Positions 1-60,898 of a stretch of DNA of 64,000 bases are shown here, in pieces; positions within the stretch are counted from its first letter, which is position 1; each line of letters begins with the position of its first letter. The translations under genes were made by a program, and so were the position numbers. Source of the DNA: Hypomesus transpacificus (lineage: Eukaryota; Chordata; Actinopteri; Osmeriformes; Osmeridae); assembly GCF_021917145.1 (NCBI RefSeq), contig NC_061067.1, positions 2,415,631 through 2,479,630 on the forward strand. The letters run 5' to 3'. Under the pieces are notes generated by a model. That model saw only the letters and a program-made list of their open reading frames with translations. It was not told where the DNA came from and made no database searches.

Positions 1-134
1 TACCGGCTGTGCCAAATGACGTTGTGTCCTTGGGCAAGGCACTTCACCCAACTTGCCTCGGGGGGAATGTCCCTGTACTTAGTGTAAGTCGCCCTGGATA
101 AGAGCGTCTGCTAAATGACTAAATGTAAATGTAA
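1..134 (+). repeat. tRNA-derived SINE, 3' part only
   Basis: The window opens inside a SINE. It shows the GTGTCCTTGGGCAAGGCAC core and the tail GATAAGAGCGTCTGCTAAAT followed by an ATGTAA repeat. The same core and tail occur in reverse orientation near 58.2 kb and 59.75 kb, where the tRNA-like head is also present. The 5' head lies outside the window. It resembles the V-SINE/HE1 type tail common in teleosts, but the exact family is not certain. Confidence 0.8.
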
Positions 135-46009: not shown

Positions 46010-48263
46010 AATAACTGTCCCAGCATGTGATGAAGAGAGCAGGGAGGTGCTCCACAGCAGCTATAACCTGACCAGCACTCTGGCCTCTATTATCCACTAC
46101 AACAGCGCCACCCCTCAGGATCCACTGGTACTGCAGGTAGGTACACCAGGCAGACCTACATGGATGTATTACCAGTGTGTCCAGTGTATGGGGCTGGTGA
46201 AATCTTGGGTTGTATAACGTGTGTGTGTTTGTCTCAGTGTCTGCAGCTGCTTCAGAAGCTGACGTATAACGCACGGATATTCCACTGTAGTAACTACATT
46301 CATGAGCTCATAGCATTCCTCATGACCAACATGTAAGATTCTCTCTCCTTTCTCTCTCTGTACGGATGCTAACCTTCACCGTTAAGATGCAGCTTGTCAC
46401 GTTCTCCTTTGCCTCTCCCTCTCAGCCAGTCTCATAATGATGACATCACCATGCCGTGCCTGGGTCTGATGGCTAACCTGTGTCACAACAACCAGTCTGT
46501 TCAGAGTCACATCAAAGCTCTTGTGAGTCTATGCTGTTTGTCTTTAAAGTTCGGTATGAATCCATGAAACAGCCTACTCTTATGTTCTTAAATTATGTGT
46601 GTGTGTGTGTGTTCGTGTTTGTTTGCATGTCCGTGTGTGTGATTGTGTCCATGTCTGTGTGTGTGTGCCCCTATGTGTGTGTGTATGTGTGTGTCCTTGC
46701 AGAGCAATGTGAAGCCCTTCTACCGTACGTTGATCAACTTCCTGGCCCACAACAGTCTGACGGTGGTGGTGTTTGCCCTCTCTCTCCTGGCCAGCCTCAC
46801 CCTGGGGGAGAGGGTGGGAGACAAGGTGAGGCTATCCTGGGGGACAAGGTGAGGCTAGCCTGGGAGAGACAAGGTGAGGCTAGCCTGGGAGACAAGGTGA
46901 GGCTAGCCTGGGGGAGACAAGGTGAGGCTAGCCTGGGAGACAAGGTGAGGCTAGCCTGGGGGAGACAAGGTGAGGCTAGCCTGGGAGAGACAAGGTGAGG
47001 CTAGCCTGGGAGAGACAAGGTGAGGCTAGCCTGGGGGAGACAAGGTGAGGCTAGCCTGGGAGAGACAAGGTGAGGCTAGCCTGGGAGACAAGGTGAGTCT
47101 AGCCTGGGGGAGACAAGGTGAGGCTAGCCTGGGAGAGACAAGGTGAGGCTAGCCTGGGAGACAAGGTGAGGCTAGCCTGGGGGAGACAAGGTGAGGCTAG
47201 CCTGGGGGAGACAAGGTGAGGCTAGCCTGGGAGAGACAAGGTGAGGCTAGCCTGGGAGAGACAAGGTGAGGCTAGCCTGGGGGAGACAAGGTGAGGCTAG
47301 CCTGGGAGAGACAAGGTGAGGCTAGCCTGGGGGAGACAAGGTGAGGCTAGCCTGGGGGAGACAAGGTGAGGCTAGCCTGGGGGAGACAAGGTGAGGCTAG
47401 CCTGGGAGAGACAAGGTGAGGCTAGCCTGGGAGACAAGGTGAGGCTAGCCTGGGGGAGACAAGGTGAGGCTAGCCTGGGAGAGACAAGGTGAGGCTAGCC
47501 TGGGAGAGACAAGGTTAGGCTAGCCTGGGAGAGACAAGGTGAGGCTAGCCTGGGGGAGACAAGGTGAGGCTAGCCTGGGGGAGACAAGGTGAGACTAGCC
47601 TGGGAGAGACAAGGTGAGGCTAGCCTGGGGGAGACAAGGTGAGGCTAGCCTGGGAGAGACAAGGTGAGGCTAGCCTGGGAGACAAGGTGAGGCTAGCCTG
47701 GGGGAGACAAGGTGAGGCTAGCCTGGGAGAGACAAGGTGAGGCTAGCCTGGGAGAGACAAGGTTAGGCTAGCGTGGGGGAGACAAGGTGAGGCTAGCCTG
47801 GGAGACAAGGTGAGGCTAGCCTGGGAGACAAGGTGAGAATAGCCCGGGGGAGACCCCAACCGGCTGACCCAGACCGGTCCCTAACGGAGAGCTTTCAAAC
47901 CTGGTGTACGGGCTGCCTGGTGGAGCTGTCAGATCAGATTTGACTAGAGGTATCTGATGCTCTGTGTGTCTCTCAGCTGTTTGATGCCAAGAACATCCAC
48001 CAGACCTTCCAGCTCATCTTCAACATCATCGTCAACGGTGATGGAACTCTGACCCGGAAGTATTCCGTTGACCTTCTGATTGACCTGATCCGGAACCCCA
48101 AGATATCTGACTACCTCACCAGGTATTCACTCAGATGAAAGACTTTATCGCTGCGTCTTTACGTCGTTGTTTTTCTCACAGAAAGTGTTTTATGCTCGTT
48201 GTTTTAATCTCTCTCTGTTTATCTCACACACTCTCTCTCTGTTTATCTCACACTCTCTGTTTA

Positions 48264-48793: not shown

Positions 48794-51700
48794 GGTGCTG
48801 GAGTTACTCCTGGCTCTCTGCAGTGTGTCAGGGCTTCGCTCCCTGCTGTGTGATGTGGTTTTCCGCCCGGCTGGGCCGCGGCTCCGGGCAGCAGGCCGTA
48901 AGCAGGGGGCAGGACTGGACCTGGGAAAGAAGGCGGAACCAGGTTTGGCCCTCGTCCAATGGCTGACATCGTCAGTGGAGGGGGCGGGGCCATGCTGTCT
49001 GCAGGCCCTACAGCTGCTCACTGAGTTGCTGGAGGTACGGAGGCCTCACTAGGACACACTGCGACTCACTGAAACTCAAACTGGAAATCTTTAACGCGGT
49101 GCTCGTAAAGTTCCTCGTGCAAGGATTCACTGTTCCGGAAATGTCTGGGTGTTTCTAGTATGATGGTATTTGTGGTGTTTCTCCCTGCCTCTGCAGGAGG
49201 CGCTGGGGGCAGAGAGTGTGCTGGGGTTTGTGGCCATGCTGGTGCCTGTGGTGTTGGGGCTCCTGAAGACACCAGGCACGCTGACAGGAGACGCTCAGCT
49301 CAGAGCCTACTGCCTACGGAGCACACACACCACCGCGCTGCTGCAGGATATCCTTGTGGGTGTGTTTCTGTGTGTGTGTGTGTGTTGTTGAGCTTAACCC
49401 CCCCCCCCCCTCTCTCTCTGTGTGATGAGAACTCCTCCAGGTGTGTGTTATTCTGTGTGTGTGGGTGTGTTAATCCTTAACCCCTTCACTCCTGTGTGGT
49501 GAGGACTCGTCCAGGTGTGTGTTAGCCAGCCAGCTGAGCCCTCAGCTCTGCCTGTCTCATGTAGAACACCTCCTGTCCTGTTGCTATAGCAACGGGCCCC
49601 TCACCAGCCCCGACTGTGACCTCAGGTGAGTGACCTCATCACACAGGTTACACACACACACACGCAGACACGGTCTTACTGTGTGTGTGTGTGTTCCAGT
49701 CAGGTGTGTGCAGAGGCAGTATTGAAGACCGTAGAGATGATGAGTAAGTTAAGACAACAGGTGAAGGGCATGGAGACCAACTTCTACATGATCCTCCAGG
49801 TATACACACACACACACACACTCACGTCCTTACTGTCTTGGTTGAAGGATGATTGTCTGTTTCCATGACAGTATAAACCTCTCCCTCACGCTTTCTCTGT
49901 CTCCCTCACGCTCTCTCTCTCCTCTCTCTGTTCATAGGACCCAAGGATGGTCACTCCCCTCTCCCTGGCCATGACGTCCAATCAGAGAGAGCGCGTGCAG
50001 ACGGGCCTCAGTTTGCTGATAGAAGCCACTCCCCTTCCAGACTTCCCTACTCTAGTGTGAGTCTCTGACCACAGTCACAGGCCCAGCTGTCCATTCATTC
50101 ATGCATCAATCCATCCAACCAGATATTCATCCCTCCACCCACACGGTCATCAGTTCATCACCCTGCTGTACGGGTCCCTCACACAGTGGGTCGTGTGTTT
50201 GTGTCATTATTGATCGTCTCAGATTGGGCGAGAGCATCGCTGCCAACAACGCCTACCGCCAGAGGGAGGCTGAGCTGTCCGTCAAGCGTGTTGCCGTGTC
50301 AGACGTCCCGCCCCCCCTCGGCAACAGCCTATCAGGACCCTGCCCATCCAGTCCCTCTAATCAGGGCATCCACAACTTGATAGAGAAGCTCCAGAATAGC
50401 ATGGAGGTGTGTGTGTGTGTGTGAGAGAGCTTGTTTGTGAGAAAGAGTGTGTGAGTGTGACATAATGTGTGAGCCTAATCTGCATCCCTGTGGTGTGTGT
50501 GTGTGTGCGCGCTGCAGTTACAGGAGCAGGTGAAAGACGTGCGCGTGTCCGAGATCATGGATGTTTACGAGCAGAAGCTGTCTGCTCTGGCGGTGTGTAC
50601 CAACATCACATCTCTCCAGGAGAACACACACACACCCCTACCTGTTTCAGTAAGGAACCCTCTCGACCTGTGTGTGCCTGCGTGTGTGTCTCTGACCTTG
50701 TGTGTGTGTGTGTGTGTGTGTCAGTCTAAGGAGAGCCGTCTGCAGGACCTGCTCCAGGCCAAGGCTCTGGCTCTCTCACAGGCTGACCGGCTCATCTCAC
50801 AGTACCGCTGTCAACGGGCCCAGGCCGAGGCCGAGGTAACGCACACACACACACTCTCATAGGTACACACGCTCACACACACATACTGGTACTGTACACA
50901 CACAGACACAACCCTCCTTGAACACACTCTCACCCCTACACAGACACACGACACAGAGTTAGCTCTATCTACCGTCTCCCTCAGCGTGTGTGTGTGTGTG
51001 CAGGCGCGGAAGCTGGCGTCCCTGCTGAAGGAGGCGGAGCGCGGGCGGGAGGCGCTGCAGGGCGAGGTGGCGTCCAGGACACTGGAGGCCGGCAGCGCCG
51101 AGGCCGACATGAGGGAGATCCTGCGGCACAACGCCCGCCTGCAGGCCGACTCCCAGGAACACGAGGCCCTCAAGGGCTCCTACAACCAGCTGCTCTGCAG
51201 GTCTCACACACACGCGCGCACACACACATGCACAGTAAGAGACACAATCACAGCTAGAGAGAGAGACACACAGAAAGTAGGAGAGACACACAGTCGATGA
51301 GACACTCACATACACACGGGGAGAGACACACGCACTTAGTGAGACCTACACGCCTACAGTAAGAAACGCCTGTGTGACCTGGCTGTGGTGTGTGGGTGCT
51401 GTGTGTGCTGTGTGGTGTGTGTGTGTGGTGTGTGTGTGTGCAGGCTGGAGGAGAGCGAGCGTCAGTTGAAGGAGCTGCAGGGGGCGCACGTCGCCCTCAC
51501 CAAGCAGAGCGACGCTCTGAGGAGGACCCACGATGCCCTGCGGCTGCAGCACGACAAGTAACACACACTCACACAGGGGTTTGGAGAAGTGGTCATGAAC
51601 CCTGGTCATCAGGGCCCACTCTCCTCTATGTTCTAGATGTTTCCCTGCTCCACCTGGTTCAAACGAATGGGTCCCTATGAAGCGGGCCCCATTCGAAGAG

Positions 51701-52429
51701 GGAAACACCTAGAACTTTTAATACATGAACACATAACACACCCTCGTAACTAAGCGTGTCTCTCACACAGGCTCGCCTCTGAGCTGCACGAGAGGGAGGA
51801 GCTTATCAGCGGCCTCCAATCAGATCTTCAGAAGAGAGACAGTGACATCACAGGTTGGTCTTCCACTGTGAACAGCAGCCTTCTACAAGTGACTCTGAAA
51901 TGCCTCTGTCTCTCTCCTAACTCTGCCCATGCCTTCAACTTGATTGGCGGGGGATTTCCGAGACTCATTTCCCACTGGGGACCACAAGGTTTATCTATCT
52001 TAACCGCCACCAAGTAAAACGACTTTCTCTCAGGTCTGCAGGCCGAGTTAAGAGAGCAGGAGGAGAGGGGGAGCGCGAGAGAGAAGGAGAAGAAGGAGCT
52101 GGAGGACACTGTGGACGCTCTGAGGAAGGATCTCCACAAAATGGAGATGGCCAGAAAGGAGGCCAGCATCCGGGTAAGAGAACCCACACACCTGTCTGAA
52201 CCTCCAGAGAAAATCTCATTCAACCCGCTAGGCCCACACTAAGCCTGGGTGTTTCCTTCCTGCCCTCCCCCTCTCCTGGCAGGCCTCTTCTCTGGAGGTC
52301 CAGAAGGGCCAGGTGGAGGCCAAGCTCCAGAAGAGGGAGGACGAACTGAACAAGAACGCCGCCATGATCGCCATGATCCACAGTCTGAGCGGAGGCAAGC
52401 TGACCAAGGATGTGAACCTGTCGCTGTGA
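45438..52429 (+). CDS. cip2a: Cellular inhibitor of PP2A (CIP2A, KIAA1524)
   Basis: Twenty-one coding exons keep phase throughout: 45438-45539, 45623-45770, 46024-46136, 46238-46332, 46426-46522, 46703-46825, 47977-48122, 48368-48443, 48795-49034, 49197-49347, 49490-49625, 49700-49799, 49938-50056, 50223-50406, 50518-50592, 50725-50835, 51004-51200, 51444-51557, 51771-51853, 52034-52173 and 52283-52429. They give 898 residues (human 905). The N-terminal half is an armadillo-like fold with [35 protein letters not shown] and [11 protein letters not shown]. The C-terminal third is coiled coil, ending [16 protein letters not shown]. Human CIP2A stabilises MYC by restraining PP2A-B56 and tethers broken DNA in mitosis. 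Intron 10 looks U12-type (AT-AC); all others are GT-AG. A 1-kb minisatellite fills most of intron 6. Its neighbour hhla2 is also adjacent in human. Confidence 0.96.
46816..47850. repeat. Minisatellite of about 40 units carrying copies of the exon 6 splice donor
   Basis: Units of 23 and 25 bp (differing by GA or GG) repeat about 40 times from the end of cip2a exon 6 into intron 6. The unit core is GACAAGGTGAGGCTAGCCT. The first occurrence spans the true exon-intron border GGAGACAAG|gtgagg at 46825/46826, so nearly every unit contains a full-strength copy of that donor. Variants GTGAGT, GTGAGA, GTTAGG and GTGAGA-AT appear in a few units. Confidence 0.95.
48259..48790. repeat. (CT)n tracts flanking cip2a exon 8
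   Basis: Long CTCTCT runs lie at 48268-48318 and 48550-48790, the latter interrupted by TATGTCTCT. They produce long Leu/Ser-rich open frames on + and Glu/Arg-rich ones on -, which are not genes. Confidence 0.95.
49348..49489 (+). other. cip2a: Apparent U12-type AT-AC intron in cip2a
   Basis: The intron starts ATATCCTT (49348-49355), the consensus 5' splice site of AT-AC minor-spliceosome introns. It has the near-ideal branch site TCCTTAAC (49474-49481) and ends CTTCAC about ten bases later. Joining exon 10 at G49347 to exon 11 at T49490 gives [20 protein letters not shown], aligning with the human CIP2A segment around LTLCGDD. A GT-AG alternative (gtgggt at 49356, acceptor GGTGAG at 49503) is also in frame but loses the conserved LCGE residues. 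Confidence 0.85.
51583..51715. mobile_element. Decayed hAT-type MITE in cip2a intron 18
   Basis: The stretch carries AACCCTGGTCATCAGGGCCC, then TAGATGTTTCCCTGCTCCAC and a shortened, imperfect inverse arm (GAGGGAAACACCTAGAA). It belongs to the palindromic family at 21249 and 28394, but it is shorter and more diverged. Confidence 0.6.
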
Positions 52430-52694: not shown

Positions 52695-53101
52695 TGCGTG
52701 TGCTTATTGTGTGAGTGAGATGTAAGGACAAACACCCGTGTGCTTATTGTGTGAGTGAGATGTAAGGTCAAACACCCGTGTGCTTATTGTGTGAGTGAGA
52801 TGTAAGGACAAACACCCGTGTGCTTATTGTGTGAGTGAGATGTAAGGACAAACACCCGTGTGCTTATTGTGTGAGTGAGATGTAAGGACAAACACCCGTG
52901 TGCTTATTGTGTGAGTGAGATGTAAGGACAAACACCCGTGTGCTTATTGTGTGAGTGAGATGTAAGGACAAACACCCGTGTGCTTATTGTGTGAGTGAGA
53001 TGTAAGGACAAACACCCGTGTGCTTATTGTGTGAGTGAGATGTAAGAACAAACACCCGTGTGCTTATTGTGTGAGTGAGATGTAAGGACAAACACCCGTG
53101 T
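52695..53101. repeat. 40-bp minisatellite between cip2a and chrnd
   Basis: About ten near-identical 40-bp units (TGCTTATTGTGTGAGTGAGA followed by TGTAAGGACAAACACCCGTG) lie head to tail. Only single-base differences are seen (for example GGTCA, GAACA). The array ends about 190 bp upstream of the chrnd start codon. Confidence 0.95.
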
Positions 53102-53289: not shown

Positions 53290-57883
<4,594 letters not shown>

Positions 57884-59187: not shown

Positions 59188-60898
59188 TCAGCTAGAAGTC
59201 TCTCTTTGTGGAAGTTGGTGAATTTCCTCCATTTCACTCATGTTTTGTTCCATGTGATGGCTGTCTTTTCTTGTGAGAGGGTCTGCTGATGTCACAGGAC
59301 TTGATTGTGTTAATTCTGCCATGACGTATTCCTCATGAATCTCAGCCCCTCCATTAGACATGGGTGACAGTCCACCTTCAGTGATCTGAGTATTCTGGGG
59401 TAAAAAGGTCTGTTGCTCTGGGCTCTGCGAGGGTTGTGGACTCCCTCCGTTCTCTCTGGGTGTGGCTACAGGGAGGATAAACGAGTCTGTTTGTTTAGAC
59501 ACAGTTAGCAGCAAAAACACAGTGTCTGACTTAGTTAGAATTGATACACTATTGATTACTATACAAACTGCATTAATCTATTGTGTTTTCAGTCTTTATT
59601 ACCTGTGTCATTGAAACCTGCACATCTTCTTCCTGAGTAGAAAAATGATAAACTATTAGACTTTTAGGCAGGGGTTAGAAGTTATGTGTCAGTGGATGAA
59701 GATAAAACACCCCCCTGCTGCCCCTTTCTGAACACCACCAGCCTTACATTTACATTTAGTCATTTAGCAGACGCTCCTATCCAGAGCGACTTACATACAG
59801 TACAGGCACATTCCCCCCGCAGCAAGTAGGGTGAAGTGCCTTGCCCAAGGACACAACATAATTTTACACGGCTGGGAATCGAACTGGCAACCTTCAGATT
59901 ACTAGCCTGACTCCCTCACCGCACAGCCACCTGACAGCCTTACCTCTGCAACACCAAATAATGAGGGCAGTAGCAAGCACACCCGCGATCACCAGACCCG
60001 CGATCACCGGACCCACAATCCGCCAATTGGGTGCCTCTTTCTCTCCTGCATATAGTAGTACACAGAAGAACAAATGAGCCACAATCCTACCACACTCCAG
60101 GTAAACAACATTTGCCAGGGGTTAGTCAGGAAAATATGGTAAAATCAAGTAAGTGTTTGTGAGCCAGGTTTACTCGACTCAGAGAGTTTGTAAGTGTTTG
60201 TTTCACCTTCAGGTAAAATCTGCAGGTCTGTGACAGACACGTATCTGTTTCCTGCAGACCTGAGGTCACAGGTGTAAGTCCCCTGGTGAGACAGTGTTAG
60301 CTTGTGGAGCTGAAGCCTGCCAGGCTCAGGGGTACTCTCAACCTGGTCCTTCCACGTCCCCTGGACCTGGGGCTCAGCTGTCTCACTGCTGAGGGTGAGG
60401 ATGAGCTCTGAGTGGTTGAACCTCCACTCAAGGTCAAAGGTCAGGGGGTCAGAGTGAGACTTAGGGAGGCTGCAGAAGATTGACACACTGCTGCTAGGAG
60501 AACCTTCAACTGGATCTGCAATAAGACATAAACAATCTGTCAGGACAGTCTGCTTGAAGCAGAGAATGGAACGAGGAGATGGGAGGACTTGGTGATTCAG
60601 AGATGAACTGACAGTACCTTGCTTCCTCAGAGTGGCTGTTCTGTTCCGAGTGTTGGATGACACAGAGCAGACATAGTCAACATCTGAGTTATTTCCCATG
60701 ATCCTTAGAGAGCTGTGGATGTTGTACAGTCCTAGGGTGTCTGTCTCAGAACTGAGGGGGGGTTGGCCGACCAGGGTGGGGCTGGTGGACCAGGTGAGTT
60801 TAGGGAGGGGGTAGATGGCTCTGGAACTGCAGGTCAACACGTCATCTGACAGCTTTATGTCTACAGAACGTACTGGAGCTGTACAAGGAAGGTTGAAT

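What the first reader, a model, noticed from the sequence alone, without database searches (positions are those of the whole stretch)
46816..47850. A minisatellite that multiplied a real 5' splice site about forty times
The array begins at the end of cip2a exon 6, and its unit contains GACAAG|GTGAGG, identical to the authentic donor at 46825/46826. The intron therefore carries dozens of strong decoy donors in series, each able to end exon 6 later. Either the first donor wins by position, or long heterogeneous exon 6 isoforms are made. Expansion seems to have started from the exon-intron border itself.
Basis: partly seen in the sequence, partly recalled or inferred. Interest (0 to 1): 0.75.

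Follow-up and report, generated by a model that had tools for sequence, protein, structure and literature searches.

The report
Smelt intron repeat copying splice donor
In the delta smelt cip2a gene, a short DNA repeat has copied the end of one exon and its splicing signal about forty times into the following intron; similar repeats are known in a few human genes, and most likely the cell still cuts at the first copy.

Summary
Confirmed. A 23/25-bp minisatellite (46816-47854) fills most of intron 6 of cip2a. The window encodes 896 of 898 residues of delta smelt (Hypomesus transpacificus) CIP2A in exact stretches; the other two codons are split by introns. The array holds 42 copies of GACAAG|GT. 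The first is the real exon 6 donor; 37 of 42 share its full 12-mer, all 42 keep GT. A 20-mer spanning the real border (11 exonic + 9 intronic bases) recurs six times in the array, so the array copies the border; introns 1-5, 7 and 8 gave no such recurrence. The public smelt protein joins exon 6 at the first donor; all 41 others would give early stops. Best explanation: a minisatellite seeded at the border, first donor dominant, slight leakage into the next unit, decay of those products. This is a known kind: human IFI6, CBS and ABCA7 carry donor-bearing minisatellites, and ABCA7 (25-bp unit) shows the predicted behaviour. Newer, unproven: of three smelt-specific residues at the exon 6 end, two raise its match to the array, as if exon and array evolve together. 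Not tested: RNA, allele length, DNA of related smelts.

The parts
46703..46825 (+). cip2a exon 6 (counting the first coding exon as 1), 41 codons, ends GACAAG at phase 0
   Evidence: splice consensus and translation; window exons 1-9 identical to the first 380 residues of P0001
46801..46811 (+). exonic CCTGGGGGAGA, also 15 times in the array, otherwise absent from the window
46815..46834 (+). 20-mer across the real exon 6/intron 6 border, repeated exactly six more times in the array
46826..46831 (+). authentic donor GTGAGG of intron 6
   Evidence: used by P0001
46816..47854 (+). minisatellite, 42 units of 23 or 25 bp, each with GACAAG|GT
47087..47111 (+). unit with GTGAGT, predicted to pair with U1 slightly better than the real donor (-10.7 against -10.1 kcal/mol)
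47855..47976 (+). remaining non-repeat intron 6 with the acceptor CTCTCAG|CTG
47977..48122 (+). cip2a exon 7, 146 nt (skipping would shift the frame)

Best explanation
A minisatellite arose by tandem duplication across the exon 6/intron 6 border of cip2a, probably in the smelt lineage, and grew to 42 units, enlarging an intron that would be 144 nt with one unit to 1151 nt. Shown: every unit carries a copy of the exon end and GT, and the catalogued protein uses the first donor. Inferred: U1 and exon definition commit to the first donor because it alone bounds a normal-sized exon, is made first, and sits at a less paired edge of the repeat RNA. Rare use of the second unit (and perhaps the next few) yields frameshifted or stopped mRNAs that are removed by nonsense-mediated decay. 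The array's length, not donor choice, is the more likely quantitative effect on expression or exon 7 skipping (inferred from ABCA7).
For: Border 20-mer and exonic 11-mer recur only in the array. In the 8 cip2a introns tested, only intron 6 repeats its junction 20-mer. P0001, identical to window exons 1-9, joins at the first donor. In an alignment of the first 460 residues of all 120 listed proteins there is no insertion at the exon 6/7 join (one row, P0116, lacks exon 6). Six proteins of the second search continue after the exon 6 end with V and then unrelated residues, as if read into another intron 6: P0121 Notothenia, P0122 Albula, P0131 vole and unnamed P0141, P0144, P0146 (126 of 148 continue with exon 7, 16 could not be read by the pattern). 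All 41 alternative donors give a stop: 40 inside the array, unit 2 in exon 7. First-donor accessibility is 0.18 against a median of 0.011 for decoys in the main setting; rank 1 of 42 in 6 of 10 settings, 3rd in 3 and 4th in 1; it exceeds the summed value of units 2-12 in 6 of 10. In human ABCA7 retention of one 25-bp unit is about 2% (PMC5954066, passages and section 21).
Against: No RNA was available; annotation hides decayed isoforms. Most decoy donors equal the real one in U1 pairing (37 of 42 units incl. the real one at -10.1, one at -10.7 kcal/mol). Summed accessibility of all 41 decoys exceeds the first donor's in 10 of 10 settings, and in the two most local settings the first donor exceeds the decoy median only 1.3- to 1.4-fold, so structure alone cannot explain first-donor dominance. 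Low decoy accessibility is not special: 26 of 100 arrays with shuffled spacers are as low. 'Smelt lineage' rests on distant species only.
Confidence: 0.68

Rival explanations
1. The decoys are used substantially and stochastically, making many extended exon 6 isoforms that all end early; the array acts as a length-dependent brake on CIP2A through splicing-coupled decay.
For: Most decoys match the real donor in U1 pairing; all 41 alternatives give a stop; summed decoy accessibility exceeds the first donor's in 10 of 10 settings; IFI6 uses two downstream repeat donors according to a passage in PMC4526556.
Against: The catalogued protein uses the first donor and no smelt-named truncated form was found. 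In ABCA7 unit retention is about 2% and independent of array length.
Confidence: 0.17
2. Exon end and array evolve in concert: array sequence has been copied back (conversion or slippage across the border) and has changed conserved residues of CIP2A from N-E-[KED]-V-G-E-K towards G-E-R-V-G-D-K. Not exclusive of the best explanation.
For: Smelt has 3 departures in the last 8 residues of exon 6, the most of 119 ungapped sequences (83 have 0, 32 have 1, 3 have 2). The observed tail matches the array at 21 of 21 compared bases; three ancestral-type peptides reach at most 17 under any of 3072 codings each. Taken singly, N to G raises the best match by 3 bases and E to D by 1.
Against: The third change, to R, does not raise the match. 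The 21 bases were chosen because they match, leaving 3 of 24 uncompared. The exon could have changed first and then seeded the array. Two other stretches of the smelt protein also have 3 departures in 8 residues. No DNA of other smelts.
Confidence: 0.28
3. An unrelated minisatellite arrived next to exon 6 and resembles it by chance.
For: Six proteins of other species continue past exon 6 into unrelated residues, so the array does not seem ancestral.
Against: A 20-mer and an 11-mer shared with the exon end, expected 0.00 and 0.07 times in shuffled windows.
Confidence: 0.03

Closest known systems
ABCA7 intron 18 VNTR (human; PMC5954066, passages and section 21 read)
   Same: 25-bp unit, array starts at the exon donor, the array's first two bases are the donor GT, alternative use of one unit shifts the frame
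   Different: That paper lets the array start at the GT, i.e. within the intron; here 11 exonic bases of the border are repeated too. ABCA7 is length-polymorphic (about 12 to 427 units) with measured RNA; here neither is known
CBS 31-bp VNTR at exon 13/intron 13 (human; PMC2630376, passages read; the exon number is recalled)
   Same: The name c.1444_1467+7 implies a unit of 24 exonic and 7 intronic bases, 16-21 copies, so the border itself is repeated
   Different: Different gene and unit. Its alternative donor use (Lievers 2001) is recalled, not read
IFI6/6-16 minisatellite with multiple splice donors (Turri 1995, seen only as a cited title; use described in a passage of PMC4526556)
   Same: Repeats act as splice donors; two downstream repeats are used, giving three mRNAs
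   Different: There the alternatives encode IFI6 isoforms (PMC4526556); here every alternative gives a stop. The shorter, in-frame unit of IFI6 is recalled
CBS 844ins68 (human; PMC2630376, passages read)
   Same: Duplicated splice border with one copy preferred, and gene conversion proposed for the haplotypes
   Different: One 68-bp copy of an intron/exon junction at the other end of an intron, not an array

Membership tests
Donor-bearing minisatellite (IFI6, CBS, ABCA7 type) | Tandem unit of minisatellite size at an exon's 3' edge | tested here: met
   TRF 46816-47854; exon ends 46825
Donor-bearing minisatellite (IFI6, CBS, ABCA7 type) | Unit contains the authentic donor of that exon | tested here: met
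   37 of 42 exact 12-mers, GT in 42 of 42
Donor-bearing minisatellite (IFI6, CBS, ABCA7 type) | Copy number varies between individuals | not testable with these tools
   one assembly only; the genome search did not complete
Donor-bearing minisatellite (IFI6, CBS, ABCA7 type) | At least one downstream unit is used as donor in RNA | not testable with these tools
   no RNA; no smelt-named truncated protein among 28 hits
Intron gain by tandem duplication of an exonic AGGT | The intron is new at this place | tested here: not met
   six proteins of other sequences leave exon 6 at the same residue with V, as if into an intron; protein-level inference

The most novel reading that the evidence does not exclude
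The minisatellite has spread back across the border and rewritten a conserved coding exon end: the smelt-specific G and D residues of CIP2A (and perhaps the R) are array sequence, so splice border, array and protein evolve in concert, with the array multiplying a real donor while selection keeps only the first one in use.
Probability: 0.28. Interest if true: 0.55.

Novelty: new member of a known kind. Interest (0 to 1): 0.36.

Why it matters
It offers a natural series of about forty near-identical donors at near-constant spacing, in which position is the main variable, so it could test how the first of many equal 5' splice sites is chosen. It also extends a small human set (IFI6, CBS, ABCA7) to a fish gene. 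If the exon end was rewritten by the array, it would show a minisatellite changing a conserved protein through its own growth.

Tried and rejected
Structural masking as a special feature: the unit holds a perfect palindrome AGGCTAGCCT (37 copies in the array, 1 at 54521) that pairs between units (z -7.4 for 451 nt of array; only -0.9 for the 298 nt that include exon 6), and the first unit has CTATCC instead. Changing that T to G in a fold lowered first-donor accessibility from 0.18 to 0.041; the reverse change raised it in 6 of 6 other units tried. But 26 of 100 shuffled-spacer arrays give equally closed decoys, so I keep it as a contributing edge effect only.

Selection against decoys: GT is intact in 42 of 42. 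Of 9 substitutions in the first 21 bases of the units, 5 are at +3 or +6, too few to conclude.

Growth by block duplication: the longest repeated run of unit types is 6, reached in 954 of 2000 shuffles; no evidence.

Intron gain by AGGT duplication (search listing only): rejected, the intron seems older.

Sparus MSTN-2 intron repeat (PMC3045353, abstract and passages): a 150-bp repeat; the passages seen do not say that it copies the donor. DDX3Y/MSY2 (PMC3039753, passages including part of the abstract): a promoter minisatellite, not a donor copy. Rfam found only two LINE 3' elements in the window.

In print: the ten paper searches (one listed nothing) showed no smelt donor repeat in the titles and abstract starts listed. 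None used cip2a as a term, and the library holds open-licence papers only, so absence is weakly tested.

Full report
The thing. Between 46816 and 47854 lies one tandem array, consensus period 25, 42.3 copies, 93% matches. Cut at each GACAAGGT it gives 42 units of 23 or 25 bp. Fourteen end in GGGAGA, fourteen in GGGGGA, eight are the 23-bp form, and six carry substitutions, including the first and last units. The 12-mer GACAAGGTGAGG is exact in 37 of 42 and has one mismatch in 5; three further near-matches lie outside the array. Every unit keeps GT.

The gene. Exon 6 (46703-46825) and exon 7 (47977-48122) have standard splice signals. Exons 1-9 of the window translate to 380 residues identical to the start of P0001, CIP2A of Hypomesus transpacificus. 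Of P0001's 898 residues, 896 lie in exact stretches of six or more in the window's frames; the other two are codons split by introns. So the window is from the delta smelt or something indistinguishable in this protein. A solved CIP2A structure, 5ufl, matches residues 1-380 at E 3e-131.

Origin at the border. The 20-mer TGGGAGACAAGGTGAGGCTA, 11 exonic and 9 intronic bases, occurs at the real border and six more times, all in the array; shuffled windows give 0.00. The exonic 11-mer CCTGGGGGAGA at 46801-46811 occurs 15 more times, all in the array; expectation 0.07. Of introns 1-8 only intron 6 repeats its own junction 20-mer, and the longest match of the last 40 exonic bases with the intron is 11 there against 4-8 in the other seven. 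Removing 41 units would leave an intron of 144 nt, in line with the other seven, 83-351 nt.

Other species. The first protein search gave 812 hits, of which 120 were listed. In an alignment of the first 460 residues of all 120 there is no insertion at the exon 6/7 join; one row, P0116, lacks exon 6. Of the 148 proteins held after the second search (28 hits), 126 continue from exon 6 into exon 7, 16 could not be read by the pattern, and six continue with V and unrelated residues: P0121 Notothenia, P0122 Albula, P0131 vole and unnamed P0141, P0144 and P0146. I read these six as run-on into intron 6 (V = GTN), and none continues as the smelt array would. So the border is old and the array is not shared by these; DNA of close smelts was not available.

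Exon end. Most fish listed have L-N-E-[KED]-V-G-E-K; smelt has L-G-E-R-V-G-D-K. It has 3 departures from consensus in 8 residues, the most among 119 ungapped rows (83 have 0, 32 have 1, 3 have 2; one row gapped). The observed tail matches the array at 21 of 21 compared bases, against at most 17 under any coding of three ancestral-type peptides. Singly, N to G adds 3 matched bases, E to D adds 1, and the change to R adds none. Against reading too much into this, the compared bases were chosen because they match, the smelt protein departs at 21 of 230 well-conserved columns of exons 1-8, and it has two other stretches with 3 in 8. Either the exon changed and then seeded the array, or the array was copied back.

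What splicing would do. By U1 pairing the real donor scores -10.1 kcal/mol; 37 of 42 units (the real one included) are the same, one is -10.7, two -9.6 and two -6.1. Among 12 authentic cip2a donors examined the range is -13.2 to -4.4, and exon 8 uses the same AAG|GTGAGG. Use of unit 2 ends in a stop in exon 7; use of any of units 3-42 ends at one stop inside the array. So 41 of 41 alternatives are broken messages. Local folding makes the first donor more open than most decoys (0.18 against a median 0.011 in the main setting), ranking first in 6 of 10 settings, third in 3 and fourth in 1. It exceeds units 2-12 together in 6 of 10 settings, but all 41 decoys together exceed it in 10 of 10. In the two most local settings the advantage over the median decoy is only 1.3- to 1.4-fold, and shuffled-spacer arrays are as closed in 26 of 100 cases. 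Among the other authentic donors of exons 1-9 accessibility varies widely, and four of eight (exons 1, 3, 5 and 8) lie below the median decoy, so accessibility is a weak predictor by itself. Structure therefore helps at best; position is needed. That exon definition and order of synthesis favour the first donor is inference from general splicing knowledge.

Known parallels. ABCA7 intron 18 has a 25-bp VNTR whose first two bases are the exon 18 donor; retention of exactly one unit is seen, at about 2%, it shifts the frame, and it does not depend on length, while exon 19 skipping rises with length (PMC5954066, passages and section 21). CBS has a 31-bp VNTR named c.1444_1467+7, which by its name spans an exon end and donor, with 16-21 copies (PMC2630376, passages). 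IFI6 uses two downstream repeats as donors (PMC4526556, passage); the 1995 paper itself was seen only as a cited title. SRSF1 and hnRNP A1 are described as favouring intron-proximal and intron-distal donors respectively (PMC5585400, passages), so the balance can be tuned.

Verdict. It belongs, by its anatomy, with donor-bearing minisatellites; the two features that need individuals or RNA were not testable. First-donor dominance with small leakage is the best reading (0.68). The part that may be new is the joint change of exon end and array (0.28).

Noticed in passing
49348-49489: cip2a intron 10 looks like a U12-type AT-AC intron: CAGG|ATATCCTT, TCCTTAAC near the end, CAC|TCCTG. P0001 (VLCGEDSS) uses these borders. 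The U12 consensus is recalled.
   Followed up: partly
49406-49450 versus 49481-49524: A diverged copy of about 45 bases of the intron 10/exon 11 border lies just upstream of the real one: a second duplicated splice border in the same gene.
   Followed up: partly
55242-55512: A 46-bp minisatellite (5.9 copies) starts about 25 bases after the end of an exon-like reading frame resembling a nicotinic receptor subunit (resemblance recalled).
   Followed up: no
52697-53101: 40-bp minisatellite, 10.1 copies, 98% alike, about 270 bases after the cip2a stop codon at 52427-52429.
   Followed up: no
71-124 (+) and 59754-59807 (-): Two UnaL2 LINE 3' elements (Rfam RF00436).
   Followed up: no
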